From assembly GCA_030248225.1 (NCBI GenBank), contig JASANE010000442.1:62001-126000 (forward strand): a DNA stretch of 64,000 nucleotides. Reading direction: 5' to 3'. This document shows, piece after piece, positions 10,414 through 38,529 of the stretch. Within the stretch, counting starts at the first letter, position 1; the number at the start of each line of letters is the position of its first letter. Below the pieces are notes generated by a model. The model was not told the DNA's origin. It ran no database searches and worked only from the letters and a program-made list of their open reading frames with translations. The translations under genes were made by a program, and so were the position numbers. This stretch comes from Trileptium ribeirensis (Eukaryota; Nematoda; Enoplea; Enoplida; Thoracostomopsidae).

Positions 10414-10492
10414 CAGAACTCGATGGCCGAGTGGTTAGAATTGAAAGATCTGCAGCGGGCTTATTCCCCGTGCAGGATCGAATCTCGACAAG
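10414..10492 (+). pseudogene. tRNA-Ser/Leu-like sequence, degraded
   Basis: CGATGGCCGAGTGGTTAGAA matches the D-arm/A-box of class II (Ser/Leu) tRNAs. About 30 bp downstream, GCAGGATCGAATCTCG resembles the B-box/T-arm, with an intervening arm-like hairpin CTGCAGCGGG / CCCCGTGCAG. The acceptor stem and T-stem do not pair properly, so it is not a functional tRNA. It may be a pseudogene, or a SINE head embedded in the left repeat arm. Confidence 0.5.
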
Positions 10493-12934: not shown

Positions 12935-13185
12935 TACATACTCTATATATATACATATATCTCTATATCCATATATACATACACATATACATACAATACT
13001 CATGAGCACATAAACACACACTACACATGAGACACACAGGCGACCTGAGCGACAGAAAGGTCGCTCAAGTTCACACCAGAAACACGCAGAACAACAACAA
13101 CAGCAACAACAGCACAACCACACAGCAACCACAACAACAAAGACACAACACAATCACGACGACAACAACAACCGGCCAAAGAAGT
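12935..13185. repeat. Simple-sequence cluster (TA)n, (CA)n, (CAA)n
   Basis: Alternating TATA/CATA runs at about 12,940-13,000 are followed by CA-rich sequence and a CAA-rich tract to about 13,175. The same succession, inverted, lies at about 22,170-22,330 in the right arm, so it belongs to the dispersed repeat. Overlapping Q/N-, C/V- or T-rich frames here are translations of simple sequence. Confidence 0.75.
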
Positions 13186-13700
13186 CCGTTAGAGAGAGAG
13201 AAAAAACAAAAAGGAAAGACGGAAAGGAAGGGGCACGGGAAGGGAGGCGGGACAGGGGGTTCCTGAGGGATTTTCGAGGAAATGGGGCCAAATTCGGTCT
13301 CAAGACGAAGAACAGGGCCGAACGATACCGAACACGAGGGGTAGACGCAGTGGCGGTGTCGGGACCCAATTTTGGATTCCGACATGTATTAGCATACAGG
13401 GATTCAGCGGGCCTTCCCGCTCTAACGGTTGGGCGGAGCGTCGCCCGCCGGACATCGTTCAACTCGCCTTGGGAAGGCGATTGGAACGAGGGGTGATTTC
13501 TCTGCCTTGGAGGCAGCGGTTAGAGGGGCACTAAAATCGTTGCAGATAGAGAGAGTGTCGATAGTGGTAGGGGCACTTTTGTCGGCCGTCCCGGGTTAAC
13601 GGGGCAACTGACGGAAACCCGCCGGGTATTTTTGGAGATGTCCCGACGTGGTGAATCCAATGAGGGGCGATTTGCCTACTCTCGAGTTAGCGATAAATTT

Positions 13701-19230: not shown

Positions 19231-20235
19231 AGCTATACCTAATTACATAGCCAGTGACACATTTTGACCAATAAATTTTATGTACAGTTTCATGTAAATA
19301 ATACGCTCATATATCATGCCTAGGACGACAGGGGAGTACCAGAGCGGGTGTGGAGGCTGGCCTTTTAGTTAATTGAAAAATTTGAGTAAGAGTAGGTGTA
19401 GAAAAAGGCACCAGCCCACAATTAATAACTATGAATATGCTTAGTAATATCATAAAAATTTCGGTCCTTGGATTCGAGTTAGCAATACCCGGTCGAGAGT
19501 GCAGGTGGATCTCGAATAAATTAGTAGTGCTACTTGTGACGTATGGCAGCCGTCCCGGGTCGATGGAGCATGTAGTACTATTCTTGATTAGATCAGGCAA
19601 GGAATCTGTTACCCTATCGAGCCTGCAGTCGATCCCACGTACTATTCTTGGTCAGCCAGCCGGGGGCCTCGAATCTCTAGTCGACCGCTACCGTACAATT
19701 TTAGTAACGTAGTCTGGCAGCCGTCCGGGGTCGGCTAGTTTAACATAACTGGCACTATTAGTGCAATTCTAAGGCTTAGGTTAAGGTAATTGTCTGAGCA
19801 GGATTTCTATCAACGGCAGTGTAGTTCTGTGCTTACGCGACCTTCCTACCCCCAGCCACTACTATAACACAGCAAAGACACCATTTAACTACGAGTCTGC
19901 CCGCCAAATAGTTTTACACTAACAGCCGAGGTGCACGAGTTGGTGGTCTAGCGGGCTAGAAAAGTGGTGATGAATCGAAATTGCTAGTTTTCTTACTATC
20001 GGTGTCAATCCAATATCACAAGTAGCTCTGCAAGTTGCTAGTTAGCTTCTATTACGCTCTCTCCAGTAGACACAGTTGACAGCCAATGATTTACAAATAT
20101 TTATTATGTAACAGGGTCGTTCCGACCCTGTCACGAGCATTTCAGGACTTTCACACTCAAAATCGTACCGTGACGCGTTGGCACATGACTGTTTTGTCTA
20201 AAAAAATGTTACTCGCATGTATGTACCGTTTAGAC
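19231..20235. other. Gap with two GGCAGCCGTCC-type repeats
   Basis: TGGCAGCCGTCCCGGGTCGA at about 19,542 recurs with few changes at about 19,710, with a looser relative near 19,655. This suggests a degraded direct repeat. The overlapping frames of 93-97 codons on both strands at 19,307-19,712 carry no recognised domain. Confidence 0.35.
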
Positions 20236-20745
20236 GAAGATGTCACTGATGTCTATGATCCGTTCTTGTGTAAAATTATTGCTTTATCAATGATCCGTTT
20301 TTGTATCAAAGTATCGCCTATGTATATCAATGAACCGATTTTGTATAAAAGTATCGCTTGTATATCAATGAACCGTATTTGTATAAAAGTATCGCTTGTA
20401 TATCAATGAACCGATTTTGTATAAAAGTATCGCTTGTATATCAATGAACCGATTTTGTATAAAAGTATCGCTTGTATATCAATGAACCGATTTTGTATAA
20501 AAGTATCGCTTGTATATCAATGAACCGATTTTGTATAAAAGTATCGCTTGTATATCAATGAACCGATTTTGGTATAAAAGTATCGCTTGTATATCAATGA
20601 TCCGTTTTTGTATAAAAGTATCGCTTGTATATCAATGATCCGTTTTTGTATGAAAGTACCGCTTGTATATCAATGAACCGATTTTGTATAAAAGTATCGC
20701 TGGTATATCGATGAACCGTTTCTGTATGACAGTGTCGCTTGTACC
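20236..20745 (+). repeat. 38-bp tandem repeat, about 13 copies
   Basis: The unit contains TATATCAATGAACCGATTTT followed by GTATAAAAGTATCGCTTG. The central copies (about 20,340-20,580) are nearly identical and the flanking copies are diverged, as expected for array growth from the middle. There are no unique spacers, so it is not a CRISPR array. Confidence 0.95.
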
Positions 20746-21629
20746 GTTTTGTAATTAGGGACGTGTGTTGTAACCTGACTGAGCCATCAGGAAATGAGCC
20801 GCCTCAACCGATCTGTAAGACTGCAGAAGGAGCCCCACACTAATGGAAACTAGAAATTAGCCTAAGACCCAACCAGCAAACACTACGTGCTATAGGTTGA
20901 CGGTTACGACCGTCCGGGAATAGGAGGCCCCTGGCTGCACGTTCGAGAAAACACGTTGGTTAAGAATGAAATCAAAAATATTAAATTTACTTGGTTTTAG
21001 CGACACACTAAGTAATGGTCACAGAAACAACAAGTCGAAATAAGCGGAAATCACACTTTTGGTAGCCTTTGCCAGTGTAAGGGACGACGGATACCGGGTT
21101 AATTCGAAGGCCAGCCACCGTCGACGGTACGATGATCCGGAAAATGACCGAAGCTGGCTGGTAGAACACTTTGGGGGAGTGTGAGTGGACTTCCAAAACC
21201 GCTCCGAACAAAGCCAGAGCTTCGCTTGTAACATGCAGGGACAATCGCTACTTACGCTAGGTGGGATTGTCAACGCGGAACCCGGATTGTTACCTTCCCT
21301 ATATATAGGACATACCATATATAAAGTACGTCAATGTATCTATCCGTGTGTGTGTGTGCCCCGAGGACGACTCTTTTGGGTAAAACCGCTCCGCTTTTGG
21401 CAGACCATTGTAGTATGCAACTAATACAAACCCCACTTTTCGACATCCTCGTTGCCCTATCCCGCATTCGATCCGGTGCATGTAACCCCTAGTTTTGTTC
21501 ATCGTGACTAGTTGAGTCCAACGATATGTGCCGGACCTCCGTCCGAGTCCCTGTTGACTCGCGGTAGCCTCGCGAAGATGCCCAGAAAGCAGTTGTCAAT
21601 CGCTGATGGGCACCGATAAATCGAATTTT
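20746..21629. other. Gap: possible decayed extension of the right repeat arm
   Basis: Similarity to the left copy fades here. A (GT)n run at 21,344-21,358 with neighbouring TATATATAGG may correspond to the CACACA/TATATA cluster at 14,180-14,230. No gene is visible. Confidence 0.35.
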
Positions 21630-24600
21630 TCGCTCAACTCTAAAATGGGCGAGCTACCCCTCATTGGATTCGTCTCGAGGAGACATCTCCAAAAATACCC
21701 GGCGAGTCTCGGTCCGCCGCCCCGTTAACCTTGGACAACCAACAAATGCGCCCCTACCATAGCCACGACTCTCTCTAATCGCCGCAATTTTAGTACCGTT
21801 CTTACCCCTGCCACCCCAGTAGCAATATCACCCCTCGTTCAAATCGCCGTTGGACGGTGAGTCCAACGATACCCGGCGGGCGTTGCTCCGCCCAACCGTT
21901 AACGCGGGAGAGCCCGCTAAAGTTCCCCATACTAATACCTATGGGAACCCATAAGTGGGTCCCGACCCGTTATTACGTCCTTCCCCATCGTGTTTGGTAT
22001 CAATCGACCCCGTTTTCCGTCCTGGGACCGAATCTGACCCCAGCCCCTCGAAAATCCTCCTGGATCCCCCTTGTCCCGTTTCCCTTCCCACGCCCGCCTC
22101 GTGTCCTCGCTGTCCTTTCGCTTTTGTCCTCGTTCTCTCTCTAACCGACGTTTCTGGTCGGTTTTCTTCTTTGGTGCTTTGTTGTTGTTGTGTTTGGTGC
22201 GTTGTGAGTTTGTGTTTATCCTGAGCGACCTTTCTGTCGCTCCGGACGCCATCCTGTCTGATGTGTGTAGTGTGAGTATTTGTGTATATGTGTGTGTAGA
22301 TATATGTATGTACATATATATATATGTAAGGACATAACATAAGGACGGACGAACAAGGACACCACGTACTAAAATTTGGTAAATTTTAGAGTTTTACGGA
22401 CGAACGAAACGTGGACGGATAGGACTAACGGGGGGCGACTTTAGGGCCCTCCCGTGGACTCTAGGGGCCCTGGAGCAGGGTTCCTGAACAGATAGGAGTA
22501 CGTTAAGGCTTGCCTCGTCTCTGACCCCGAGACGGACGTTCTTTCCCGTCGCCGGTTCCCCCCCCCGGCGGGACTTCGAAACATAGGCTTCGGCAGGAAA
22601 AGTACAAATTAGCTCGAGTCTTTTCGATATTTTCGGATGTCCTCGCGTACGAGGGTCATCTGCTAAATTCAATTTAGCTTAATTAGGATGGCGGCAAGTC
22701 AAGGACAACAAAGACAGAGCCGATCGCCGCCGAGTTAGGATGAGTTGGGAAGATTGAACAATCAAAATTCAAACAGATTGGCACGCTAATTGGAGTTGAA
22801 GAAAGAAATTGCGTGTCCCGAAAGTAGTCGCGATAGTTTAAGTTAAGCTGGGACCGGAAATAGTTCAAATCTTGTTAGTTTAGGATCTGATTTCGCTGGA
22901 CATCCGGCGATGAGAACGGGAAATTGGGACTTCAAAATTTACTTTTCTTGGGAAAATTTGGACAAAAATCACAGATGGTCAACTTCCGAGTACTCGGAAG
23001 ATTCAAACTTGATGTCGGCAAATTTAATTGAAGCCGACTCTCTTTAAGGAGATCGACGGTTTACGGTAGCCGTCAAGATTCTATTTTCCGGAAGTGTCCC
23101 CAATTGGACACTGGACAGAAAACCCAAAAAAGTGGGTGTCAAGAAATCGCCAACGATTGGACGGCGACAAAATCGCCATCCTAACATACAGGCAGAAATT
23201 TCGAGGTTACGACCAACGCATCGAATCTTGGAATCAGTTGGACTTCGACAGCGCGGAGTTCGGTCGACTTTACTGACCGGCTCCGACGCACTATTTTCTG
23301 TGTTTAGTTTTCATATGGCTCTGCTTTCTTTGGCTTTTCGCTTTTGCTTCGGACCGATTCGATGGACAAAGATTTCCGGGTAGGTGTATACCTGGCGAAG
23401 GGGTTCAGCTGGTGCTGCCCCAGGGATCAACGTTCGTAAGTACTGGAAGGCTCAGTGGATGCAGGGGTTTAGTTTCCCTGCCGGATGAAGAGTAACAGGC
23501 CATTCTCTTAAATATTTCATGAACGTAGCATGTTTCTTTGCCCCTAAGTAGAATCTATCGCGTTCAAGTTTCACCCACCCCGTCCCCTCGGAAAAGCTAC
23601 ACACGATCTTAACTGGAATCAACCTCTAGAATCGAGTTCCGACGTAGGAGGCGTTAGGCGATTTAGGGCATATTCGTGCAGAGCACTGTGAGGACCGACT
23701 GACTAATTCGAAGTCTTTCTGATTCCACGTGGTCTTAGGTAAGGCACAACAAAATGGACGCTTCGCGTCCGGGATTTACATGACTTGCTTCTTTTGAGTT
23801 AGGATCAATGAATTTTCCTGAGCCGACCACGGTAAAATTTCGTGAACGTGCATGCCGCAGAAAATAGGGACTTACTCAATGGTTTTGCTATTTTGGTTTA
23901 CAAACTTACAGCTTAGTGGATTGTTCAATGCTCATGCTGTGTTTGAGCTTGGACAGAATCGCAGATTAGGGACGGTGGACTAGCTTCCGTCGGGTTTTAG
24001 GAAACCCTCAAAATTTCGTTTTGTTCTTTTGAGTTAAGAAAATTTGGGAATTTAAAAGACTAATCAAGTTCTAGGGACGTTAACTTGAGCTTAAGGTGTT
24101 TGTTGCTTTCACGGAATGTTGTCTCGAAATCATCTTTACTTAGTTGTTAGGATCTGATTTGTGAAAACACAGACGACATATTCGGTAGGCACCTCATTCG
24201 TGCGCCAACCTCATTAGGACGACTGACCGGACTAACTTTAGACGCCCCTCTGGACCCCCGGCTTGTTTAAAGATGAGCTGGAGGAGCAACCCCCAGCTGA
24301 GCAAAAAATCCGCCGACTTCGATCTGTGACGATGGTGCATTGTTTGGTAGCGATACACCAGTTCTGACTCCAGATAACTATGTGGCGAAAACAGTTAAAT
24401 TTACCAGTGTTCGCCATTGCACTACGCAATGGTCTCTTCTCGAGACTATCGTCCAAAGGTGATAGAAATTAAAGTTTACCCCTGGGCCATCACCGGAAGC
24501 CGCCTTTGCGCGGAGAAACACATTGTGTCCCCGCCTTCCAACAAAATTTTAGGACTTTCAAAAACAAAGAAAACTTACCTCCTCGCCCTGGCCATTTCGG

Positions 24601-25991
24601 CCCCAAACCGGGCGAGTGCAAAACCCCTTTTTCCTTTTGCAGCGAGTCAAATACAATAGGATGAAATTACTTATGGGCACAAATGCAAGTGTATCTTGAG
24701 GATAAACGATTAGACGCCCCTCGTCAGATTCTGTGGTCAGTATCGTTTTGAGCAGCGCTCCCACCATGCTGTAGAGCTCGCGTAGTCCGCCCCGAACACC
24801 GTTTTTCCCTCCGTCCCGCTTAAGCATTCGTCGCCCAGAGCGACCTGCATTGAGGAGCGATCTCTGAAGCACTCTAGGGCCCCTGCTTAGTGCGCTGCAT
24901 AGCTGAGTAGTTAGCTAACATTGAGTCGAAGCAGGGATAACCGCCCCTAGTTCGCAACGTGGCGAATATCCGTACGCTCCAACCCTGATTTGTTTTCTCA
25001 TCGCCCAGTGCCCGTGATTGATTAAACCGACGCGACCTCTGCGAGTTCCTGCTAAACTCCCCAAGGTGATCACTTAGGTCGTCCGACAGACGTTTGGGAA
25101 CACTCGTCCCGGCATAAACATTGATCTCGTAAATAAACGTTGTATCTTGACACACCGAGTACAGTCTTCTTCGATACCGAGACGATAGGGACTTTCTACT
25201 TTTATGGTTTGTCCGCTCGGACGAGCAGGCACTGCTCGCCATGGCTTGTGGGCGAGAATGTCACAAGCACTGGCGAGCAGGGCCTTCTAACATCTATTTG
25301 TGTTCTTGCTCAGGAGAAAACAAATGGAAAACGTCATCCCAATTTGACCCGTTCACGATAGGACCCAAGAAATTTGTTAGGAATGTTCTCGATTTTAATA
25401 AGTTAAAACTTCCACTGGCCAAGGTACCAGTGCGCTTGCCTAAAATCTACTGATAAGTGCAGGCCACGCCATTGATAATCCGACACTAAACACTCAGGGC
25501 TCGTCGGAACCCTGTGGGGGCCACATAGGTCAATGCTCTAACACGGAGCATACCGTGAATTTAACTAGGCAAATCGTCTTGAGCTTCAAATTTCTAGGGA
25601 CATTTTCATGTTTTATTTCAAAACTCACTACACTAAAACAGAATTTAACAACTTCCGATGAGTCTAAGATAGGGAATAGCGGCTAGGCTCCATGACCTGC
25701 GAGCAGGTGTCGGTGCTAGCCTCCCTGGGGGACCTCAGAAATCATACCCGATACTAGACACGTGCGCAACCCTTCGGGCGGGGTCCGAACACACCCCGTG
25801 AAGCGCGCCTGCGGCCTGCTAAGCTCCGTAGCTTCTTGGGTCTGACCAAGAATAGGTTCAAAATTTAGTATTCACGGTCCACCCTTGAGGTTACGATAGC
25901 CGGGGTCGTATGGGCATGGTGTTAGGAAGTTGCGCCATGCAGCTGCGTCACCGGTTATTACAACGTATGGGGGCTACGCCGTGAGGCGTCA
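21630..25991 (-). mobile_element. Right copy (arm) of the 5-kb inverted dispersed repeat
   Basis: Reverse-complement partner of 8512-13,700, colinear over its length. The best conserved part, 25,700-25,860, includes GAAGC(T)TCTTGGGTCTGACC and the block around CGCGCCTGCGGCCTGC. The outer edge of both copies is GCCTCACGGCGTAGCCCCC. The many short open frames (for example at 22-25 kb on both strands) are not conserved between the copies and so are not called as genes. Confidence 0.75.
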
Positions 25992-26496: not shown

Positions 26497-26805
26497 CTTG
26501 ATTTGGAACGATATTACTTCGCGTTATTGACTGATTTGGAACGATATTACTTCGCGTTATTGACTGATTTGGAACGATATTACTTCGCGTTATTGACTGA
26601 TTTGGAACGATATTACTTCGCGTTATTGACTGATTTGGAACGATATTACTTCGCGTTATTGACTGATTTGGAACGTTATTACTTCGTGTTATTGCCTGAT
26701 TTGGAACGGGATTATTCTGTGTGATTGACTGATCGGGTTCGGTACTAATTCGTGTTCGTGGCCGACTGGGAACGACTTCATTCCGCGCTACCGACTGACT
26801 TGGAC
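26497..26805 (+). repeat. 33-bp tandem repeat upstream of the retroelement
   Basis: The unit is TGACTGATTTGGAACGATAT followed by TACTTCGCGTTAT. About nine copies are present. The central five are identical and the edges are diverged. A period of 33 keeps one frame open (26,479-26,724), but the peptide is only the repeat translated. Its position about 0.75 kb upstream of the gag start suggests an LTR or leader (enhancer-like) repeat. That role is inference. Confidence 0.9.
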
Positions 26806-27546: not shown

Positions 27547-30500
27547 ATGGACGCCAACGTTAATCACAACGGCGACTTGGAGACAAGCGACTTTTTCGGC
27601 GCGACGGATGGACCGATGGAAGATACCGTACGGCCCAGAACTCGACCGGCCGCAACTGCCGGCGAGCGACCGTTGACACCGCCACCACCTCGACCAACTG
27701 GACACTTGCGTCGTGGAGACTTTGCTGAAGCGCTCGGCGCGGACGCAAGTGCCACGAATGCGATCTTGCACCACTTAACCACCCAGTCCACCGGTCCTCC
27801 AATGATACCGTTAAGGGACATGCCGACCTTTGATGGGAAACCTGGAGGTCAGGATTTTGAGGATTGGGTCCGAATGTACAACCGTCTCGCCAACGCCAAT
27901 GGTTGGGATGATCGTCGAAAACTAATTTGTGTACCTGCTCTTTTGCGTGGACCGGCAAGGGAGGCTTTCGAAGGCCTTCCACCGGCGAAGCGTCAAAGTT
28001 TCTTAGGACTTGTCGCCAACTTACGCTTTTTGTTTTCGTCTTCTCGCAGGCCTGAGAAATCACTATCAGGACTTTGCACTAGGCAACAAGGAGCAAACGA
28101 ACCAGTTGCGATGTATGGTTTAGAGTTGCAGAAGTTGTGTGATCGCGCCTTCCCCGATATGGAAGATGAGCAAAGGGACACCATGCTGCGCATGTTCTTT
28201 CAGAGAGGTTTACGACCCGAGGTGCGCAGGCAAGTTCTTAACCAGATTCATGAGTGCGAGACGTTTCGCGATACAGTAGCTGTTGCTAAGCGGTACGAGG
28301 ATGCAAACGCTGCTTGCCCCGACCCAGACGCTTCGGTTACTAGTAAACCCCGCACTAAGACGGTAAACTCTCTTCTTGAGGAAGGAGGCGAAGGTCTGAT
28401 CACACAACTCCAGACCATGATTGAGGAACACCGTAAGGCAAACACTAGTAATAGTGATACGATTAGTCGGTTATTAGACGTAATTGACAAACGAGCTGAG
28501 AACACGCGTCAATTAAATGCACTCGCGCCGCCGTTTGTACCCGGCTCGCCTGCCGCGCCGCCGTGCTTGCCGATGCCGCATATCACTTGCTATCGTTGTG
28601 GTGAACCAGGGCATGTCATGCGCGACTGCCCGCATCCCGCGCGCTATCCGCCAGCTGCTAACAACGTACCGCGCAACGCCGAACCTGCGCCAGTTTATGC
28701 TCCTGGTGCAATACGCCGAGAGCCAATGCAGTATCAACCGAGGAACTACGGAGGAGCCTATCCTCGGAACGATAATTATCCTGTGGGCCGTGGAGGTCCT
28801 CAACCGCCTCCGTCTCGTCGTTTCGAGAACGGAGCGGGACACCGAAATAACGTAGGATGGAATAGTGGAGGAAATCGTCCTAATTTGAATCAACCTGGAT
28901 ATCAGTCTAACCGCCCAACCCCAGGTTTCGCTAATAATGCTCGTGGTAATGGAGACTACGCAGGTAACCGCCAATCCGCTATGTACAGCAACAGACCTGG
29001 ACAGGCTAATGGATATCAGAGAGCCGCTAATGAGCGACCGCAGTTTGAGCGCAATGTAGGTCTACAGCAACAGTCTAACCGTCCGTATGTAGGAAACGGA
29101 GGAAATAGAAACGGAGGTGCAGTAGAGCGTCGCAGATATCAACTAAACTGTAGTGCTTCGCAGACAAAAGGTAATCGTGACCCTAGCCCAGCCACTACCC
29201 ACCGTTTAGACGTGCTTAGTCGTGAGCTCGGCATGATCCAGGGTAAGTTAGGATATAGCGCCCCAACTGGACGAGTGAATGCTATTGCAATTGCAGACGA
29301 ACCGCAGTATGACGATGACGGATATGAGATGAACCGAGACGACGATGACATGGACTTTTCCGAGATGACAGAGGGATTTGCTGAGAGGCATTTGAATGTG
29401 ATTACGACTGCTCCTTGGGCTGATGCCGCGCGTCTTCCTCGGAGTTGTAGTCCGTTCCAGCCGATCGACAATCCCGAAGATAGGACGTTGAATTTAACCG
29501 ACGCCGACTACGAACAGTATTTGGACGATAGCACCAGCACTGTATTATATAGCACTGAAAATAGAAAACACCAAAAAGAGGGTTATTTGGGAGAGGGATT
29601 GTATATGTCATGCGTGGACATACCTAGCGCGGGTATTGATCCACAAGTATATATGTCTGCGAGCGATATAGAAAGCGAACCGCGAGGCGAGCGACAGGTC
29701 GACCAATCGAACCATCCGGCCGTGCGTAGGTCTGGAATGAACGAACGAACCTTAATGGCTTTGGAAGGTAGTAATGATAGTGTTGAGATTTGTGATGAAA
29801 TGGAGAATAATCAAGTTGAAAATTATAGGTTAAGTGAGTATAAGGAAAGTGATGATTTTATTGCCGGCCGTCCCCAGGGAATCACCTCAAGGGGGAATTC
29901 CGGAACCCCCAGCTCTTTGGAGATGACTGCGAGGAATGTGGATGATGATGTTGATGTATTTGAGCCATTGTTATTATTATTTTCCTCCTCTGTGGCTGGC
30001 CATCCGATAGAGAGTGTGGTGGATGTTGTTGATGATTATTCCGGCAGGGAAGCCGAGGACGTTGATATGGCTCATGAAGATACGGATCGATTCGGGTCGT
30101 CGTGTGAGACACCCATGGAGCTTTTAGAGACCGATGGAAGGTCAGGGACGATGGAGGTTAGGTTAGACGATGTAGAGGCCTCATCAGAGTCGCCTAGCCC
30201 TAGTTCCGTTCTAAATTATAGGTCGTATGATGTAGTATGTGGGTCGGACCGCCGCGCGGGTCGTCCCTTGTGTGATGATGCGAATTGTGTGTCGTATGAA
30301 CTTGCTGATTTGCCTAAGTTAGGTCGCGCTCGCAGTCTTAGTGAATTCATGATGGATAATGATGGAAGTGATGTTGATGTAATTGAGTGCTATTTTGAAC
30401 CGGCCAATTATAGCACCGATGGACTTGAGGTGACTTTCCCGACCTCATTGGCAAGGGGTTCCACGGTCATTGGGTCCTTCCTTGATGCTGACCGGGGCCG

Positions 30501-33500
30501 CCCTTGTCACCTGTATCCAAGCAGAGGTAGCAGCGGGTTCGCGACCGTTCGCACCGATGAAGCGGGTATGATCGTTGGGGCTGAAAGTATTGCCCGGGGT
30601 CTGCCCAGGTACGGGGATGTTGATGGCGGAGTGGCAAATAAAGGCCGTCCATCGCATTGTGAGGCTTCCGTTGCGCCAAGCGTTACTGAAGCGCGCAGTA
30701 ACGTTCCCCATGCTGAGCTAAGTTTTTTCAATGACTTGCATGATGAAGTTGATGTGGTTGATGATGTTGTTGAACAGAAGAATAGTGAATTGAGGGAGTC
30801 GGTTGAACTCCTATTTGAACGAAGTGGATCCACAGCGAGCGAAGCGAATCATTTAAGCGAAGCGAAAGTGTCTAATCTAAGTCAAAGCACTGCACATGCA
30901 CATAGCGATTTTGAGGACGAGCAGGATAGTGAGCCTGAGTATGAAATAACCAACGCTCTGGACGACTCTGATAATAGTCACGACGAAGCCAGTGATAGCG
31001 AACTCGATGAGGAACAACTATTAAGCGACGAAGAGTTCTGGGCAAATTGGCAAGATCCGAACGCCGATTGGTACCGACGTGGACCCACCCCCGATGTACG
31101 AGAGTGGCACCGTGAAGGGGCATGGGAAATGCGCCGAAACAATGCGTTACAGCGAACACTATCGGACGAAGGTGTTGACTTGAGCCTGCGAACAAGTCAT
31201 TTGTCAATCCGCTCCGGAGACGCTGATGACACTACCAGCGAGGATGAGTCGGATGTGACCACCGAAGAAGACAGTGATGAGGATGAGTCGCCGGACGCGA
31301 GCGAGTTGAGATTGGCTCACTCGGATGACAGTGTAGGGGAGGATCCTATCGAAGGGTCGCCGCGTATGCGCCCGGGTAATTTAGGTGAGTCCACTAACAC
31401 TTTGTCTAGCGTTTCTAGCGATATTTCGGGATCCGTCGAAGAGGTGCCCTGTATGCCCTCGGGTAATTCGGATAGCCCGCTTAAGAAATCTAAGGTAGCT
31501 GAGGATGAATCCGTCGAAGGGAGACCAAGTATGTCCCCGGGTAATTCGGAGGAATCCGTGGTCATTGTCAGTGAACATTCAAACGCATGTATGGGACGAC
31601 GACAGTTACTTGACTTTGTGCAGGACGCCAACGACGAACGATCACGCCGACTGGATGAGCAATTGCACAGCATGTATGGACTTTATCTTACTCATAACCT
31701 CCCGATTGAACGAGGACGCATTCGCGCACTGACAGCGAATGAGCGAAATCGTATTGTGGGACCGGACACATTATTTGCTATCTCTACCGATCATGCCGAG
31801 ACCTCGAACTATCAATATCCGCGCATCGAAATAACCGAAAATTCGAGCCCCTTTGTAGCGGAATGTCTTATTCCGATTAACTTTAGAGCAGGTGAGATAA
31901 ACGCTAACTTCGGTCAATCTGTGGTACTACAACCGCAGGCCCTTTTCTATAGGAGGGTTGTGTTAGCCATGGAGCAATTGAACAATCTTAGTAGGCTGTT
32001 CGACGTTCGCTTTGAATGTAGCGAGGACGCCGCTCTTCAACGAGATTCCGCTATGCTGAGCAGTATTCTAGGTATGGCCTCCCCTATCGATCATCGCGTA
32101 ACTGGACTGTACCTTGATCCAGTGGCTCTCGCTTCGTTGGAACTCCTCATGGAATTGTTGGGTCAATGCGTGAATGGCCACACGCTCCAGCAAGTCATGG
32201 AGAAGGAATTTGAGGCAGAGCTAAGTAAGCACCCAATGTGTCAAGAGTGTAGGAGGAGTCATACTCGACCAACATCGAGCGTCGATCCTTGCTGTTATTT
32301 TGTAGGGCGCCACGGAAAGTGGAACAACCAAGGTACTTTAAGCACCGCTTGCGCTTCTATCCGCAGTGACGGCTATATAATACCTAACTGGCGTTACTAT
32401 ATTGGTATTCAGACGCCCCGAATGCAACGACTCTCCCGTGCAGCTAACATCGACTTGCATGATATGCTGGGCGAAGCGCCCCAGCTGTTAGAATTCATCT
32501 ATAGAAATCAAGGTAGCGAAGGAGTCCCAATAACTACTTTCGCTCAGTACACAATGAATAACGTGGAGTTTACAGACGAGTCCCATAGTCGGGATCGCCT
32601 AGTGCTCTTGTGTGCGCGTTTGAGACTCCTGAGACGCCCTGCTAGCGTCAATATGCTCCAAATTGAGTGCGGCACGACCATCGGCGAACATGTAGAAGTG
32701 GACTACTTAATTTCGGAACCGTGTACACTCCGGCGCAGTAGTATCACTAGCTCCACTCAAGACTTGGACGAACAGCTGGCTCTAGCGATGGCCGACTGTT
32801 TAAACACTTCCGAAGAGGATCTTGGTGAGCAGAATGAACCGACGGCAGAGAATGCCCGACCAGTTGATGGGGAAACCCCGAGTGGAACTGACGAACAGGT
32901 AGTGGACAGTGAGGAGCAATCAGAGCCTCCCCGAAAGATGGCTCGACCTTCCTCTCCTAGCTTAAACAATGGCCCAGGTCAAAATACAGGTATTTGGAAG
33001 GTTTGTGCTATCTTACTGTTACTTTGGCTCTCGACACTAAGCTCTACGCACGCCACGCTCTCGCCTTTCAGTGACGCAATTTCACGACTAGGTGCATTTG
33101 TAAACCGCCAAGTAGGTGTTGTCGTCGAACCGCAGGGTCTGGTGATCACCTCCGACCAGACTACGCACTTGCCAGTGGTACTGCAGCTGTCATTGAGAGA
33201 TTGGGAACGCAAATCGGACCCCTACGTAAGCAATGTTTGTCCAACGTATGAAGTTAACGGTTCCTGCCGAGCTGATTGCTGCAGGAAGGCGAACTGTACT
33301 GAGTACCCGCAGCTGCATACAACCTTGAGCGCATTAGAACGCGAACTGGACGACGCATATCATGGCATATTAGATACCAATTATTACTCGCTACTTGTGC
33401 ACTCCTTCTGCCTAGAGAACGAGCACCTATGCGACCTTACCAACCGTCGAGAAAAACGCTTTGCGAGCCTAATCGCCGCCGCGGCGGGCGCCGTTTCTGG

Positions 33501-35400
33501 TTTTCTAGGTTTAGGAATGGCTTTTGCCAACGGAGTTCATATTAATAACGTACGTCAGCAAGTGACCGTTCTCGAAAAGTTTATGCGCGAGACGAATGAC
33601 GTCTCTTTTCGGAATACTAAGGCAATAAAGCAACTAACCCGAGCTAATGAGGACATTTATGCATTTCTACACCACAGCATGCAGGAGGTCGTCTTCATGA
33701 TTGAGCAGGTCCGATGCGCTGATCAGAAAAAGGTCACACACGTGCATCATCAATTAATTGATCACATACTGCGAGCGAACATGCGCTCGTCGGTACAGGC
33801 CATCATGGAGTCTATGTTAAACGGCGAACTCTCCCCCGCTGTTATCGATGTCGTTATGCTACGACGATTATTCGCAATGGATTCCCGCATATCCAAGACC
33901 ATTCTGATGCGAGAACCCAGTCTAGCCTATCAATTTGGCCGAGTGATGCCCGTAAGTGTAGACCTATCGAGATTTCGCTTTGGCTTTATTTTGCAGTTAC
34001 CTTTGCCTAAACGCAGCGATGTCCGACCCTATTTTCGGGTCTATAACACAGGTTGGAACGCTCCCGACATGCTGACGCAGCTGAAACTACCTCTACCACA
34101 ATATGCAGCCCGATTGGGACATACGCGTTTCGAGTCGCTGAATCTAGGAGCATGCATGCACAGACCCGGAATTGCTTTCTGTGCACCCCACGCGTTACTA
34201 ACCTACCACAGTACAAATTGCTTAGAATGGATCATCGCAGGCGAATTCGTGCCACAATCCACCAAACACGCATGCAGCAACCGCGCGCTCATCGGCCCAC
34301 TCGCCAATGACACCGCCGTACACACAACTATTCAAAGTGTTCTAATTAGGACTAGAGAGCCCGAAGTTATACTGACAAATCGTAGACAGCTCGCGCATGT
34401 CACCCTAGGTAAGGCCATTAAAGTTCCGCCTACTGGAATTTTATGGTTTCCCCAAGGAAATTATACGCAGTTAGACGTAGGATCGATTGTACTAACGAGC
34501 ATGTTAAAGCCAGAGGAAATCACAATTAAATTTGGACCAAATATTACTATTGACCGGCTCTCCGGCCTCAAACTAAGACCTCTAACCTGGAACTCACTCG
34601 ACGACGCTAAGGCGACGAACTTACATGTAGCTCAGATAGCTAAGGAACAAGTACAAAAGATAGTTAACTTTCCTGCCTTAGAGTATACCGGACTTTCTCC
34701 TTACCTTACAGTTACCATCATTGTTAGCGTAATTAGTCTGGTCTACTGCATGACCAAGTGTAAGGTCTGTCCTAAGTACGCCTACTACCCACCCGGTTGG
34801 CTACCATGCCGCGGGAGACTGATCAAAACTGACGGAAAACCCCGAAAAGCAATTAGATGGGTCAGAGCCGACAAAAGAGGCCCTAGCGCTCCAACTGAGG
34901 AGGAAACTACACCCCGAGCTTCGCCGACCGAGGTTTCGATTGTACCTTCGGGAACGCCGCGCGTGTCCGTTGCATCCAATCGTGCCCCGCGCCGCTCGAA
35001 CCGGCTGCTGACAGCTCGTGCCTCCTCTGAAGAAGAACTTGTATTCATTGAAGACGAAGAATTGTTCGCTAATCCTACCCGTGACTTACGCCGTGGACCG
35101 CGACAGGGTATGTTCACCCGACAATTAAACACAATGAACGCAGGTAACACCCCACTCCTCATCAATGCAACCATACTCGGCACTCCAGTCACGACACTTG
35201 TAGACACAGGAGCGGATGTGTCAATCATGTCACAAGCCCTAGCCGCCCGTTTAGGCCTGGTACCCCGAGACACTAACACCACCCCTATAGGATCGGCCAC
35301 CCAACAGGAACTGACAATTAGTGGAGTGGTGAAAGCACCAATTACTATAGGTTTCGCTAAGTACCCCATGCGACTTTCAAGTGACTACCGACACACCTAA
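27547..35400 (+). CDS. Gag-X-Env-protease polyprotein of an LTR retroelement
   Basis: 2,617 codons without a stop. I start at ATG 27,547 (context acgATGg), since the codons upstream lack an ATG. Residues about 90-250 resemble a Ty3/gypsy Gag capsid region. C348-x2-C351-x4-H356-x4-C361 is a nucleocapsid zinc knuckle, followed by a Gly/Asn/Arg-rich stretch to about 530. Residues about 580-1350 are acidic and repetitive. About 1350-1735 looks globular, with a Cys/His cluster at 1565-1583. A UIM-like helix lies at 1739-1758. A hydrophobic signal-like segment at 1819-1836 starts an envelope-like module. It contains RREKR at 1967-1971, an Ala/Gly-rich fusion peptide from F1972, a heptad-like helical region, and a transmembrane segment at about 2387-2405 with a basic tail. 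DTG at 2553-2555 starts a retroviral aspartic protease. The frame is lost inside the protease near 35,365. Known: these domains are typical of Metaviridae and retroviruses. Unusual: Env precedes protease and pol. The X region is unassigned. Confidence 0.88.
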   Translation: MDANVNHNGDLETSDFFGATDGPMEDTVRPRTRPAATAGERPLTPPPPRPTGHLRRGDFAEALGADASATNAILHHLTTQSTGPPMIPLRDMPTFDGKPGGQDFEDWVRMYNRLANANGWDDRRKLICVPALLRGPAREAFEGLPPAKRQSFLGLVANLRFLFSSSRRPEKSLSGLCTRQQGANEPVAMYGLELQKLCDRAFPDMEDEQRDTMLRMFFQRGLRPEVRRQVLNQIHECETFRDTVAVAKRYEDANAACPDPDASVTSKPRTKTVNSLLEEGGEGLITQLQTMIEEHRKANTSNSDTISRLLDVIDKRAENTRQLNALAPPFVPGSPAAPPCLPMPHITCYRCGEPGHVMRDCPHPARYPPAANNVPRNAEPAPVYAPGAIRREPMQYQPRNYGGAYPRNDNYPVGRGGPQPPPSRRFENGAGHRNNVGWNSGGNRPNLNQPGYQSNRPTPGFANNARGNGDYAGNRQSAMYSNRPGQANGYQRAANERPQFERNVGLQQQSNRPYVGNGGNRNGGAVERRRYQLNCSASQTKGNRDPSPATTHRLDVLSRELGMIQGKLGYSAPTGRVNAIAIADEPQYDDDGYEMNRDDDDMDFSEMTEGFAERHLNVITTAPWADAARLPRSCSPFQPIDNPEDRTLNLTDADYEQYLDDSTSTVLYSTENRKHQKEGYLGEGLYMSCVDIPSAGIDPQVYMSASDIESEPRGERQVDQSNHPAVRRSGMNERTLMALEGSNDSVEICDEMENNQVENYRLSEYKESDDFIAGRPQGITSRGNSGTPSSLEMTARNVDDDVDVFEPLLLLFSSSVAGHPIESVVDVVDDYSGREAEDVDMAHEDTDRFGSSCETPMELLETDGRSGTMEVRLDDVEASSESPSPSSVLNYRSYDVVCGSDRRAGRPLCDDANCVSYELADLPKLGRARSLSEFMMDNDGSDVDVIECYFEPANYSTDGLEVTFPTSLARGSTVIGSFLDADRGRPCHLYPSRGSSGFATVRTDEAGMIVGAESIARGLPRYGDVDGGVANKGRPSHCEASVAPSVTEARSNVPHAELSFFNDLHDEVDVVDDVVEQKNSELRESVELLFERSGSTASEANHLSEAKVSNLSQSTAHAHSDFEDEQDSEPEYEITNALDDSDNSHDEASDSELDEEQLLSDEEFWANWQDPNADWYRRGPTPDVREWHREGAWEMRRNNALQRTLSDEGVDLSLRTSHLSIRSGDADDTTSEDESDVTTEEDSDEDESPDASELRLAHSDDSVGEDPIEGSPRMRPGNLGESTNTLSSVSSDISGSVEEVPCMPSGNSDSPLKKSKVAEDESVEGRPSMSPGNSEESVVIVSEHSNACMGRRQLLDFVQDANDERSRRLDEQLHSMYGLYLTHNLPIERGRIRALTANERNRIVGPDTLFAISTDHAETSNYQYPRIEITENSSPFVAECLIPINFRAGEINANFGQSVVLQPQALFYRRVVLAMEQLNNLSRLFDVRFECSEDAALQRDSAMLSSILGMASPIDHRVTGLYLDPVALASLELLMELLGQCVNGHTLQQVMEKEFEAELSKHPMCQECRRSHTRPTSSVDPCCYFVGRHGKWNNQGTLSTACASIRSDGYIIPNWRYYIGIQTPRMQRLSRAANIDLHDMLGEAPQLLEFIYRNQGSEGVPITTFAQYTMNNVEFTDESHSRDRLVLLCARLRLLRRPASVNMLQIECGTTIGEHVEVDYLISEPCTLRRSSITSSTQDLDEQLALAMADCLNTSEEDLGEQNEPTAENARPVDGETPSGTDEQVVDSEEQSEPPRKMARPSSPSLNNGPGQNTGIWKVCAILLLLWLSTLSSTHATLSPFSDAISRLGAFVNRQVGVVVEPQGLVITSDQTTHLPVVLQLSLRDWERKSDPYVSNVCPTYEVNGSCRADCCRKANCTEYPQLHTTLSALERELDDAYHGILDTNYYSLLVHSFCLENEHLCDLTNRREKRFASLIAAAAGAVSGFLGLGMAFANGVHINNVRQQVTVLEKFMRETNDVSFRNTKAIKQLTRANEDIYAFLHHSMQEVVFMIEQVRCADQKKVTHVHHQLIDHILRANMRSSVQAIMESMLNGELSPAVIDVVMLRRLFAMDSRISKTILMREPSLAYQFGRVMPVSVDLSRFRFGFILQLPLPKRSDVRPYFRVYNTGWNAPDMLTQLKLPLPQYAARLGHTRFESLNLGACMHRPGIAFCAPHALLTYHSTNCLEWIIAGEFVPQSTKHACSNRALIGPLANDTAVHTTIQSVLIRTREPEVILTNRRQLAHVTLGKAIKVPPTGILWFPQGNYTQLDVGSIVLTSMLKPEEITIKFGPNITIDRLSGLKLRPLTWNSLDDAKATNLHVAQIAKEQVQKIVNFPALEYTGLSPYLTVTIIVSVISLVYCMTKCKVCPKYAYYPPGWLPCRGRLIKTDGKPRKAIRWVRADKRGPSAPTEEETTPRASPTEVSIVPSGTPRVSVASNRAPRRSNRLLTARASSEEELVFIEDEELFANPTRDLRRGPRQGMFTRQLNTMNAGNTPLLINATILGTPVTTLVDTGADVSIMSQALAARLGLVPRDTNTTPIGSATQQELTISGVVKAPITIGFAKYPMRLSSDYRHT

Positions 35401-36073
35401 CGAATGCATCTTAGGTACAGGTTTCATGGCTTTACTACCGTATGTAGCCATAAATTTCAAGGACAGCTGTTTGGATCTATCAATCGGGACGGAAAACTGT
35501 TCGGCGACCTTCGCCGATCAAGGAGACTATCGACCGCCCGTCATCAACGTAGTAAATAGAAAATATACACAGGTACCGCCAAACACCGAACTATTCAACA
35601 ACGCTATCCCCGAGATCACTCAGCCACCCACTGGCCAAGCACTATTTGTACCAGACCCTTTCATTAGGGACATTGCCATCGCACACGCCCTGGTGCTCAC
35701 TGGTCAATGCATGATTCCAGTAGCGATGATGAATTTTGGAAATATACCTGTTGCAGTACACGCAGGACAAACAATAGGACACATCGAGATGCTGGACGAT
35801 AATGAGGTCGAGCTCTTGTACGACAGCAACAAGCGTCTACTCCAACTCGGACCTCCTCAACACACCAAACAATGCAACCGCATAGGAGTTACACGCGACA
35901 ATGTAGTGCAAGTCATAAACGATCAAAACAAAACAATCGACACGGAAAGATCCATGCAGGTACTGAGCAAAATCGATTTTGGACAGACCACACTTAATCC
36001 CTATGAACTAAAACAATTGAAAACCACTATTTCCGAAAACGCAGACATATTCAGTGTGCACCCATCGACCTAG
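35365..36073 (+). pseudogene. Protease C-terminus and protease-RT linker (frame 2)
   Basis: A frame change near 35,365 moves the reading to a different frame open to the stop at 36,071-36,073. The protease C-terminal motif ILGTGF lies at about 35,408-35,425, equivalent to the usual ILGxDF. After it comes the linker typical of Ty3/gypsy Pol, with the pattern N-x-GNIPVAVHAGQTIG. The reading returns to frame 1 near 36,068. I see no obvious slippery heptamer at the first change, so decay is more likely than programmed frameshifting, but this is inference. Confidence 0.75.
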
Positions 36074-36700
36074 GTAGGTGTGGTGTACACCGGCATAGGA
36101 TAATTACAGGGGACGCAAAACCCATAAAGCAGGTGCCGTATCGTTTGGCACATTCTCTACGTGAACCTCTGAGGGAGGAACTAAACAACATGGTGGAAGC
36201 CGGACTTATAACACCATCAGATTCACCTTTGGGCTCACCCATTGTGTACGTCACCAAAAGTGACGGCACCTTACGTTTATGCGTGGACTTTCGCAAACTT
36301 AATGTGGTCGCCGAACGCGTCCTATACACGCTACCCGCATAGACGACATATTAGGATGCCTGCGAAACACAAAATATCATGTCGAGTTTAGATCTAAGCA
36401 AAGGGTTTTGGCAATTAGAATTAGATCCCGAAACCAAGGAAAAGACTTCCTTTGTCACTGTCCACGGACAGTACGAATACAATGTCTTACCCTTTGGCTT
36501 AAATTCTTCGCCAGGCGCCTTCCAAAGGTGCATGTTAATAATTTTAAAAGGCTTGGAATGGGAAAGATACCTCATTTATATAGACGACATATTAGTTTTC
36601 TCACCCACATTTGAACAGCACTTAGCAGATCTCAATCACAGTTTCGTAAGGCTAATCTCAAACTAAAACCCTCCAAATGCCAATTCGGACACAGAAACAA
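36074..36700 (+). pseudogene. Reverse transcriptase, disrupted
   Basis: Ty3/gypsy-type RT fingers and palm. The LREELNNMVEAGLITPSDSP region, the LCVDFRKLN motif, SSLDLSKGFWQ (first catalytic Asp) and the catalytic YIDDIL box at 36,577-36,594 are all present. Breaks: an out-of-frame patch at about 36,338-36,378, which puts stops at 36,340 and 36,352, and frame changes near 36,645 and 36,698. The catalytic residues I can see are kept. As it stands the segment cannot be translated as one protein. Confidence 0.9.
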
Positions 36701-37400
36701 TTAAAATACCTCGGACATATCATTAGCTCTGAAGGAGTTAAACCCGACCCCGAGAGAACTGCCGCGATAGACAACTACAAACGTCCCGAGACACTCAAAC
36801 AATTACAGAGCTTCCTAGGACTTGTAGGTTATTACCACAAATTCATCCCACATTATTCCGAAATTTGCGAACCACTTAACGCCCTCCGACGTAAGGACAA
36901 TGAATTTAAATGGACACCGCAATGCGAGGAAGCATTCGGAAAGCTACGCAAAGCACTAGTACAGGAGCCACTTCTCATCTACCCGGACTTTTCCGAACCC
37001 TTCATACTACAAACGGACGCTTCAGGATACGCTTTAGGAGCCGTGCTCTCGCAAAAAACTGACAAAGGGACATTGCCTATCGCTTATGTTAGCAAATCAC
37101 TAGCGGACAACCAACGCCGATACCCCGCTATAGAAACCGAAGCCCTCGCTATTCGATGGGCCGCTCTACATTTTAGGCACTACTTGCTCGGATACGAATT
37201 CCATGTCGAGACTGATCGTAAGCCACTTAAGGCATTATTTGAGAGACCACCGCGAAACTCACGCCTAGCCCAATGGCGTAATGAGTTACTCATGGAATTC
37301 GGTGGATTCAATATTGAATACCGGCCAGGCAAGGCCAATGCCAACGCATACGGACTTTCACGCGATCCCCGACATGACGTTGACTTCTCTGATTCCGATG
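36701..37400 (+). pseudogene. RT connection and RNase H (frame 2)
   Basis: Continues pol with KYLGHIISSEGVKPDPERTA and LQSFLGLVGYYHKFIPHYSE, then RNase H: QTDAS (Asp at 37,016-37,018), ETEALAI, and ETDRKPL. The last catalytic Asp of the family, normally in a GKxNxxADxLSR motif, reads as Tyr (TAC at 37,349-37,351). One base change from GAC would explain this. RNase H activity would be expected to suffer. The frame is open for about 360 codons, so this is the least broken part of pol. Confidence 0.9.
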
Positions 37401-38089
37401 ACGAAGCCGAATATGACGCACAGGACCATACACGAATGGTTGCTGTAGCCGTAAAAGGACAGGATCGTGGCAAGGGCAAAGCCCCTGCCAAACCGCCGCG
37501 GAGACTTCCTACCGAAGAAGCTTGGAAACGACTTACGCGACAGTTAATGGGACTCCCCCCGATGCTCCCGTTAACCTCCCACCCGAGTACGTTAGGGACC
37601 GCTTTTATCGCATGTTTGGAGGACCAGGATATGACCCTCTACCAGACCCGACGCGCTTTATTTTCTGCGGAGACATCGACGACCCATGGCCTGAGGGGGT
37701 CCAGAAGCCCTGGAAGCGCTCGACCGCACCCGGACCGCCGACTGAACCGGTCCCGACTCAAGAACCCGTGAGCGAATCCGCCCCTGGACGTTCAGCAGCC
37801 CCTGATCCATTCATTAGACCTACGCTACCACCAGAACCCCCGACTGCTCCGACACCGCCCGCCCCTGGCGCGGCAAGGGAAAGCTCAACACGTGCCACCG
37901 CTGGTACACCTGATCCCACCAGGCCCCGGACATTACCACCAACCGCTAGGAAAAGATATGGTGGCTTACCAGAAGTCGAGGAGTTCGATACATTAATTAG
38001 GGTCGCTTATGCATGTGAACCGCGAGTGCGACTATAACGCCCTGAACAGGTCTATGACACTGGTTAACACATATATCTACCGCACTTCC
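37401..38089 (+). pseudogene. Pol insert: acidic then Pro-rich region between RNase H and integrase
   Basis: After RNase H comes an acidic patch (DFSDSDDEAEYD) and a basic one. A frame change near 37,545 leads to about 170 residues rich in Pro, Thr and Ala (37,545-38,034), which include FGGPGYDPLPDPTRFIF and many PxP/PEPPTAPTPPAP-type runs. Frame 1 stops occur at 38,035 and 38,068. No known domain is recognised. Ty3/gypsy elements usually have only a short linker here, so this is an unusual insertion, perhaps a disordered spacer. Confidence 0.6.
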
Positions 38090-38529
38090 AACAATATGAA
38101 GGACGAAATCTTCTCAATTATATACCTTACATCCAACGTAGAGACAAACAATTTGGCCCTATATGGTGGTACCTACATACTCGACAACCACCAGCTGACG
38201 AAAAGGCAGCGACTGCTCTCAAGCTAGAAACCCATCACTACCGTCTCTGCCCCGACACAGCTATCCTTTACCTACACCCCATCATGCCTAATGACCACAG
38301 ACCTAAATTGTGCGTGCCCAGATTACTTATACGACAGATACTCAAACACGAACACGACACTCTGTTCGGTGGACACCCAGGTAGGGACCGCCTACTGCGC
38401 AAACTCAAACAATTCTATTACTGGGAAACCATGGGTAAGGACGTTGACGAATATGTAAAACGATGCTTGCTTTGCCAGCGCTCACGGAATCTGCCCCAAA
38501 ATGTTAGAGCCGCCAACTTCAAGAAATAT
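38090..38529 (+). pseudogene. Integrase N-terminal zinc-binding domain, truncated
   Basis: The frame runs through YIQRRDKQFGPIWWYL and CVPRLLIRQILKHEHDTL, then the HHCC zinc-binding module: a His pair around HDTLFGGH followed by CLLCQRSR, with YYWETM between them as in other retroviral integrases. The reading stops at TAA 38,530-38,532. No DDE catalytic core, integrase C-terminus or 3' LTR follows, so the element is truncated at its 3' side. Confidence 0.9.

What the first reader, a model, noticed from the sequence alone, without database searches (positions are those of the whole stretch)
27547..38529. Retroelement with gag-X-env-pro-pol order
Seen: one ORF carries a CCHC knuckle (residues 348-361), an envelope-like module (signal-like segment, RREKR site, fusion peptide, transmembrane anchor; 1819-2405) and only then the protease DTG (2553-2555). 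RT, RNase H and the integrase zinc domain follow. Known: Metaviridae, retroviruses and Belpaoviridae place env after pol. I know of no described LTR element with Env between Gag and protease. Inference: a distinct lineage with its own expression strategy.
Basis: partly seen in the sequence, partly recalled or inferred. Interest (0 to 1): 0.93.

Follow-up and report, generated by a model that had tools for sequence, protein, structure and literature searches.

The report
Giant retroelement with envelope inside polyprotein
The window holds a decaying copy of a very large, many-copy virus-like jumping gene whose envelope-like (probable cell-entry) protein sits in the middle of one giant protein instead of at its end, an arrangement already described in planarian flatworms, and relatives in the same genome also carry an unexpected ADP-ribose-related enzyme gene.

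Summary
One open frame (27523-35400) carries Gag with a CCHC knuckle, a long X region, a class-I-like envelope module and then the DTG protease. RT, RNase H and the integrase zinc domain follow, here in broken frames; the copy is cut off at 38513. It is not an assembly join: the same 687 Mb genome gave 110 scored RNase H matches (window included), 12 of them in open frames of at least 4,700 codons. In 8 of 8 copies chosen for long frames, X2-Env-protease-RT-RNase H are collinear in one open frame; Env dN/dS is 0.02-0.03 within subfamilies. Elements are about 28-30 kb: LTRs of 5.4-5.9 kb, ORF1 of about 4,700 residues, then an ORF2 with a NADAR domain (4 of 4). No Env match lies after pol (4 of 4 pieces). 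[quoted passage not shown] This is a Burro-like family with different cargo: no Burro accessory modules found, but a NADAR ORF. Homology of Env to a known fusion protein was not found by sequence and could not be tested by fold. Verdict: new variant of a known kind.

The parts
20107..25962 (+). 5' LTR (TGTAA...TTACA), about 5.86 kb
   Evidence: Start string matched with 7 of 27 mismatches, end string identical to that of L002 and L006; flank homology 72-88% to 5' pieces of other copies over parts of 21657-26704. The start is the less certain end.
25968..25980 (+). primer-binding-site-like TGGGGGCTACGCC just after the LTR
   Evidence: TGGGGGC[T/C]ACGCC follows the LTR end in the window and in L002, L004, L006, L008; the matching tRNA was not sought
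26499..26733 (+). 33-nt tandem array in the leader
   Evidence: similar array in L002
27547..35400 (+). ORF1 part still open: Gag-X1-X2-Env and the N-terminal part of protease
   Evidence: other copies are open on through pol
27823..28527 (+). Gag capsid-like region
   Evidence: Pfam Retrotrans_gag E 1.5e-4, 22.3 bits against cut-off 24.1
28504..28548 (+). PAM2-like motif (possible poly(A)-binding-protein docking)
   Evidence: Pfam PAM2 E 0.0082, below cut-off; LN..A..F.P occurs once in six frames of the window
28582..28635 (+). CCHC zinc knuckle (nucleocapsid)
   Evidence: Pfam zf-CCHC E 3e-8, one stretch
29047..31746 (+). X1: acidic, serine-rich (21% D/E, 12% S), no Pfam family over its cut-off
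   Evidence: (only SKA1 at E 0.4)
31747..32937 (+). X2: unknown Cys-containing region, faster evolving than Env
   Evidence: 51-93% identity to 10 other copies; dN/dS 0.09 in the two within-subfamily pairs; no Pfam at E<=10
32986..34794 (+). Env module: signal 32986, RREKR 33445, fusion-peptide-like segment 33460, heptads, anchor 34693
   Evidence: 85-94% identity in 9 copies with an unbroken Env; dN/dS 0.02-0.03 in three within-subfamily pairs
35158..35400 (+). aspartyl protease, N-terminal part with DTGA; frame break inside the domain
   Evidence: Pfam PF13975 5.8e-9; full length in one frame in L014
35411..36055 (+). region between protease and RT, frame 2, no family
   Evidence: 88-95% identity in 10 copies; no Pfam at E<=10
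36064..36690 (+). reverse transcriptase, broken across frames 1 and 3
   Evidence: RVT_1 3.7e-20; tblastn frames; best PDB matches include Ty3 Gag-Pol 7q5b
36692..37369 (+). end of RT and RNase H, frame 2
   Evidence: RT_RNaseH_2 8.5e-36
38302..38487 (+). integrase zinc domain, frame 1
   Evidence: Integrase_H2C2 4.7e-21
38513..38513 (.). 3' truncation point of this copy
   Evidence: homology to L001, L003, L005, L007 ends at 38513 in 4 of 4
8533..14870 (-). second LTR of the same family in reverse orientation, followed by the same primer-site-like string

Best explanation
This is a 3'-truncated, decaying copy of an abundant, giant (about 28-30 kb) Ty3/gypsy-type provirus-like family with the architecture reported for planarian Burro elements. 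Layout, inferred from separate pieces of different copies: LTR, ORF1 = Gag, X1, X2, Env, protease, linker, RT, RNase H, integrase and a tail of about 750-770 residues, then ORF2 (NADAR), then LTR. Shown: the order, one frame, copy number, purifying selection, LTR ends by matching strings. Inferred mechanism: ORF1 is made as one polyprotein. The signal inside it threads Env into the ER while Gag-X and protease-Pol stay in the cytosol on either side of the membrane. Signal peptidase, a furin-like protease and the element's own protease then release the parts, so capsid, fusion protein and enzymes are made together and assemble at a membrane. A rival expression mode, a spliced Env mRNA starting at a Met next to the signal, is not excluded. 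ORF2 may remove ADP-ribose from nucleic-acid guanines or guard a related NAD pathway (inferred from the NADAR family only).
For: Order and frame. In 8 of 8 copies chosen for long open frames (L009-L016) the whole piece is one open frame; L020 has the same order with a shorter open stretch, L019 the same order but broken. Copies: 110 scored of 5377 candidates, window included, 12 with open frames of 4,705-4,749 codons. Env dN 0.010-0.012 against dS 0.33-0.50 in three within-subfamily pairs (0.02-0.03); RT N-part 0.00-0.01 in the same pairs. REKR and the fusion-peptide-like segment after it invariant in 7 of 7 Env rows. No Env match after pol in 4 of 4 3' pieces. Integrase core 5.8e-12 in L001, the one copy tested for it, and NADAR ORF2 in 4 of 4; ORF2 dN/dS 0.09-0.12. 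Internal length 16,944-17,585 nt in 4 of 4 copies. LTR pair of C7014 95.5-98.2% alike in its main blocks, 80% and 75% in two later blocks. Burro architecture: PMC6431247.
Against: Env resembles a class I fusion protein only by layout: no Pfam family over its cut-off and no fusion protein among solved-structure matches; the heptad signal is weak (53 of 500 shuffles reach it); no fold could be computed. Direct kinship with Burro is untested: no Burro sequence was available. Only one CCHC knuckle was found against two or three in Burro, no dUTPase family hit between protease and RT, and no Burro-type accessory domain in the pieces tested. The internal part (about 17 kb) is smaller than Burro's (up to 25 kb).
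Confidence: 0.85

Rival explanations
1. Env is not made as part of the polyprotein but from a spliced mRNA that starts at a Met right before the signal, as in ordinary retroviruses; the upstream position then matters little for expression.
For: A Met directly before the signal core is present in 9 of 9 other copies examined (absent in the window copy), in the context CAGGT-ATG in 8 of 9. Two donor-like sites lie in the leader at 27234 and 27328.
Against: No acceptor-like tract (at least 12 of 16 pyrimidines) within 300 nt upstream in 4 of 4 subfamily-A rows and only borderline ones (12 of 16) in 5 of 5 subfamily-B rows. The earlier in-frame ATG at 32938 is kept in only 2 of 7 rows. There is no stop between Env and protease in the 8 open copies, so a spliced product would still carry protease and Pol.
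Confidence: 0.35
2. The locus is an artefact: an assembly join or chimera of two elements that puts Env before protease only here.
For: Pol is frame-broken while gag-X-env is open in the window.
Against: Same order in 10 of 10 other copies examined, on ten other contigs, in one open frame in 8 of them.
Confidence: 0.01
3. The window's gag-X-env frame is a domesticated host gene kept open after pol died.
For: All seven disruptions that I count by hand (five frame changes, two stop clusters) fall in the 29% of the length that is pol; chance 1.7e-4 if uniform, 5.8e-4 for six (post hoc).
Against: The window copy's Env has more amino-acid change than its relatives have among themselves: window against L009/L016 dN 0.027-0.029, dN/dS 0.05-0.07; L009 against L010/L016 dN 0.011-0.012, 0.02-0.03. 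Its broken pol pieces show a like excess (RT N-part 0.020 against 0.000-0.005). That is relaxed, not tightened, selection. The frame also ends inside the protease.
Confidence: 0.06
4. The Env-like module is not an entry protein but a membrane-anchored structural or host-modulating domain.
For: No sequence match to any known fusion protein.
Against: Signal, furin-type site, adjacent hydrophobic segment and anchor in the right order, with cleavage motif REKR and hydrophobic segment invariant in 7 of 7 rows. The same position is called Env in Burro from HHpred (PMC6431247).
Confidence: 0.12

Closest known systems
Burro (GYPSM1) giant Ty3/gypsy elements of planarians (Arkhipova and Yushenova 2019, PMC6431247, section 7 read)
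   Same: Giant gypsy-like element; ORF1 of 4,873 residues there and about 4,700 here; N-terminal Gag with CCHC; Env in frame between Gag and protease; then RT, RNase H, integrase; long element with accessory ORFs.
   Different: There: MATH, BIR, ankyrin, RING, SUMO-like, BCL2-like and dUTPase-like modules, over 30 kb in all. Here none of these found by Pfam in the pieces tested; one CCHC knuckle; acidic X1, unknown X2, long Pol tail, NADAR ORF2, about 28-30 kb. Host not identified; window 50-66% A+T in 2-kb steps against over 70% in S. mediterranea (PMC11410931, passage seen).
Errantiviruses and other env-bearing Metaviridae
   Same: Ty3/gypsy pol; fusion-type Env (details of their Env recalled, not tested).
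   Different: Their env is a separate ORF, usually after pol (PMC6431247 section 7; PMC5408684 passages).
TelKA LTR elements of bdelloid rotifers (PMC5408684, passages)
   Same: LTR element with a fusion-type Env of about 600 residues.
   Different: Env is ORF3, separate from gag and pol; dUTPase between protease and RT.
Cer1 of C. elegans (PMC10309623, abstract, outline and passages)
   Same: Ty3/gypsy element with an extra ORF.
   Different: The CERV ORF lies after pol; CERV is a nuclear RNA-export protein that does not resemble Env.
NADAR family (PMC11543638, passages)
   Same: ORF2 matches Pfam NADAR (E 9.8e-16 to 6.5e-17) and PDB 8bau (2e-4).
   Different: The passages name bacterial antitoxins and bacterial, eukaryotic and viral lineages; the terms 'retro' and 'transpos' do not occur in that paper's main text.

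Membership tests
Burro giant Ty3/gypsy elements | Env in the same frame between Gag and protease | tested here: met
   window; X2-Env-protease in one frame in 8 of 8 chosen copies
Burro giant Ty3/gypsy elements | single ORF1 of 4.8-5.1 thousand residues | tested here: met
   12 of 110 scored matches have open frames of 4,705-4,749 codons; slightly shorter than Burro's 4,873 and 5,140
Burro giant Ty3/gypsy elements | giant size (over 30 kb, internal part up to 25 kb) | tested here: inconclusive
   internal 16.9-17.6 kb in 4 of 4; LTR 5.4-5.9 kb, so about 28-30 kb: same order of size, somewhat smaller
Burro giant Ty3/gypsy elements | retrotrans_gag plus two or three CCHC knuckles | tested here: not met
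   retrotrans_gag just under cut-off; one knuckle in the window copy; other copies not tested
Burro giant Ty3/gypsy elements | accessory domains (MATH, BIR, ankyrin, RING, SUMO-like, BCL2-like) | tested here: not met
   none at Pfam E<=1 in window X pieces nor in L014 X pieces; HHpred-level search not available
Burro giant Ty3/gypsy elements | dUTPase-like domain between protease and RT | tested here: inconclusive
   no Pfam at E<=10 for P0003; Burro's was annotated with HHpred
Burro giant Ty3/gypsy elements | common RT ancestry with Burro | not testable with these tools
   no Burro sequence was found in what was offered
Ty3/gypsy (Metaviridae) | RT-RNase H-integrase order and Ty3-type RT | tested here: met
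Errantivirus | env as separate ORF after pol | tested here: not met
   no Env match in 4 of 4 3' pieces; the ORF there is NADAR
Class I viral fusion protein | signal, furin-type site next to hydrophobic segment, C-terminal anchor | tested here: met
Class I viral fusion protein | heptad-repeat coiled coil after the fusion peptide | tested here: inconclusive
   best window lies shortly after the segment, but 53 of 500 shuffles reach its score
Class I viral fusion protein | fold or sequence homology to a known member | tested here: inconclusive
   no Pfam or PDB sequence match; fold not computed, queue full in 11 of 11 attempts

The most novel reading that the evidence does not exclude
A second, NADAR-armed group of giant enveloped Ty3/gypsy retroviruses exists in which the fusion protein is made inside Gag-Pol by an internal signal sequence, and the ORF2 enzyme strips ADP-ribose from viral RNA or cDNA as a counter-defence against a host ADP-ribosylation immunity.
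Probability: 0.25. Interest if true: 0.82.

Novelty: new variant of a known kind. Interest (0 to 1): 0.6.

Why it matters
It turns a trait reported from planarians into one seen in many copies of another genome, with long open frames and strong purifying selection on Env, so the question how a membrane fusion protein is made from the middle of Gag-Pol becomes directly testable. The NADAR ORF suggests a link between eukaryotic retroelements and ADP-ribose-based defence.

Tried and rejected
Assembly-join artefact: rejected. Env after pol in other copies: no match in 4 of 4 3' pieces; ORF1's tail has no hydrophobic peak (maximum 0.45-0.55), ORF2 a moderate one (1.22-1.45), so a quite different membrane protein in ORF2 is not wholly excluded, but its family is NADAR. 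Conserved separate start at ATG 32938: rejected, kept in 2 of 7 rows. Domestication: weak. The ENA contig with the closest outside RNase H (P0047, 76% over 24% of the query) could not be opened.

Led nowhere: protein searches for Env and Env plus protease (none; 8000 candidates scored each); six scans of viral contigs and two of prokaryote genome contigs: none confirmed; PDB sequence searches for Env, X2, Gag and the post-protease region: no related match; NCBIfam (only sub-cut-off matches). The genome-wide Env search did not complete, so Env copy number rests on RNase H copies plus 10 loci read.

Dropped or partial: 110 of 5377 RNase H candidates and 150 of 2317 NADAR candidates were scored by the tool. 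The eight copies L009-L016 were chosen because one search showed long open frames, so their open frames are no sample of the family; L019 and L020 were taken as more decayed ones and are not in the 8-of-8 count. dN/dS pairs shown are a chosen subset of rows plus four rows each; between subfamilies dS of Env is saturated. The shuffle test and the disruption count are post hoc.

Claim of prior art and of absence: ten paper searches; none asked about NADAR, so nothing is claimed about NADAR in print. Grohme et al. 2018 (Nature) is not held and is known here only through PMC6431247.

Full report
What is in the window. The + strand frame 27523-35400 is open for 2625 codons. It holds a Retrotrans_gag-like region (E 1.5e-4), one CCHC knuckle (3e-8) and, at its end, an aspartyl protease (5.8e-9). 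Between them lie an acidic, serine-rich X1 and an unknown X2, then a module with the layout of a class I fusion protein. A hydropathy scan of the frame gives three separate strong peaks: a signal (32986), a segment directly after RREKR (33445) and an anchor (34693); five N-glycosylation sequons lie in the module. Shuffled residues reproduce the joint pattern in 19 of 20000 (post hoc).

Decay of this copy. Pol is real but broken. Of 98 outside homologues used as queries, those listed align to RT in frame 1 (36064-36660) and frame 3, to the end of RT and RNase H in frame 2 (36692-37369), and to the integrase zinc domain in frame 1 (38302-38487). The protease is split: the open frame ends inside it, whereas L014 has the full domain in one frame. 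Homology to other copies ends at 38513 in 4 of 4. So this copy cannot be autonomous, and the stop at 35400 is not a natural gene end.

The family in the same genome. The window is part of contig C292 of a 687 Mb assembly of an unnamed organism. RNase H gives 110 scored matches, the window's own included, of 5377 candidates. Twelve lie in open frames of 4,705-4,749 codons. In eight other copies chosen for long frames (L009-L016) X2, Env, protease, linker, RT and the start of RNase H are collinear in one frame that is open through the whole piece; L020 keeps the order with a shorter open stretch, and L019 keeps the order but is broken. Env identity to the window falls in two groups, 93-94% and about 85%; X2 ranges from 51% to 93%.

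Both ends. The LTR is TGTAA...TTACA, about 20107-25962 in the window. TGGGGGC[T/C]ACGCC follows it in the window and in four of four other copies. The distance from 5' LTR end to 3' LTR start is 17,455, 16,944, 17,099 and 17,585 nt in four of four copies. In C7014 the LTR blocks are mostly 95.5-98.2% alike, with two later blocks at 80% and 75% and a short identical block; by those coordinates this copy spans about 30 kb, insertions in the 3' LTR included. No target-site duplication was established. A second LTR of the family lies reversed at 14870-8533.

After pol. In four of four 3' pieces the ORF1 frame continues into a tail of 749-773 residues after the integrase region, without a hydrophobic segment; the integrase core was tested, and found, in L001 (5.8e-12). 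A separate open stretch of 358-433 codons with a NADAR domain follows in 4 of 4 (E 9.8e-16 to 6.5e-17; PDB 8bau for L001, 2e-4). By pol and gag identity two of these copies belong to each subfamily. No Env match lies in these pieces. NADAR is frequent in this genome (150 scored of 2317 candidates); how many belong to this family was not determined.

Selection. Env has dN 0.010-0.012 and dS 0.33-0.50 in three pairs within subfamilies (ratio 0.02-0.03), close to the RT N-part (0.00-0.01), while synonymous sites of Env are saturated between subfamilies. X2 has 0.09, the Pol tail 0.10-0.14, and ORF2 0.09-0.12. The REKR motif and the hydrophobic segment after it are invariant in seven of seven Env rows. 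So Env and ORF2 are maintained parts of the element. The window copy's Env is more relaxed (0.05-0.07 against subfamily A), which speaks against domestication although its gag-X-env frame is still open and all seven disruptions I count lie in pol.

Mechanism. Shown: order, frame, membrane-protein layout, selection. Inferred: an internal signal threads Env into the ER, leaving Gag-X and protease-Pol on the cytosolic side, and cleavages by signal peptidase, a furin-like protease and the element's protease separate the parts. The rival is a spliced Env mRNA. A Met immediately before the signal is found in 9 of 9 other copies but not in the window copy, with no acceptor-like tract in 4 of 4 subfamily-A rows and borderline ones in 5 of 5 subfamily-B rows. 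There is no stop between Env and protease in the eight open copies, so even that product would carry protease and Pol.

What is known. PMC6431247 (section 7 read) reports Env in frame between Gag-side domains and protease in planarian Burro elements, calling it the first case. The present family shares order, single giant ORF1 and, roughly, size class. It differs in having one knuckle, no detected Burro-type accessory domains, and a NADAR ORF2. Kinship with Burro by sequence could not be tested. The RNase H tree of the window and its 98 outside hits pairs the window with P0047, a fragment from an unnamed ENA contig (SH-aLRT 99; P0047 fills only 29% of the columns).

Verdict. Observation confirmed; interpretation partly supported; new variant of a known kind. 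The remaining surprises are the Env constraint and the NADAR ORF.

Noticed in passing
L001:4165-5463:+; also L003, L005, L007: ORF2 after pol encodes a NADAR domain in 4 of 4 copies, two from each subfamily, under purifying selection (dN/dS 0.09-0.12).
   Followed up: partly
own genome: NADAR is very frequent in this 687 Mb genome: 150 scored of 2317 first-look candidates, the scored ones at E 2e-38 to 4e-33.
   Followed up: no
window:28504-28548: PAM2-like motif in Gag just before the zinc knuckle, a possible poly(A)-binding-protein docking site; single occurrence of LN..A..F.P in six frames.
   Followed up: partly
window:8533-14870 (-): Another LTR of the same family in reverse, with the primer-site-like string after it: probably the 5' LTR of a second, truncated copy.
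   Followed up: partly
own-genome copies, ORF1: Synonymous sites of Env differ by dS 0.33-0.50 even within a subfamily, while one copy's LTR pair is mostly 95.5-98.2% alike: long-diverged replicating lineages with strong amino-acid constraint.
   Followed up: partly
window:48296-48610: Fragment of another RT (RVT_1 E 0.001, below cut-off).
   Followed up: no
window:1068-2815: 1.7 kb array of 16-nt units (CTTCCCATCTTCCCAA), open over long stretches in several frames.
   Followed up: no
window:56889-57293: Near-perfect (99%) tandem duplication of 203 nt.
   Followed up: no
window:31344-31550: Three imperfect 42-nt repeats inside X1 coding sequence.
   Followed up: no
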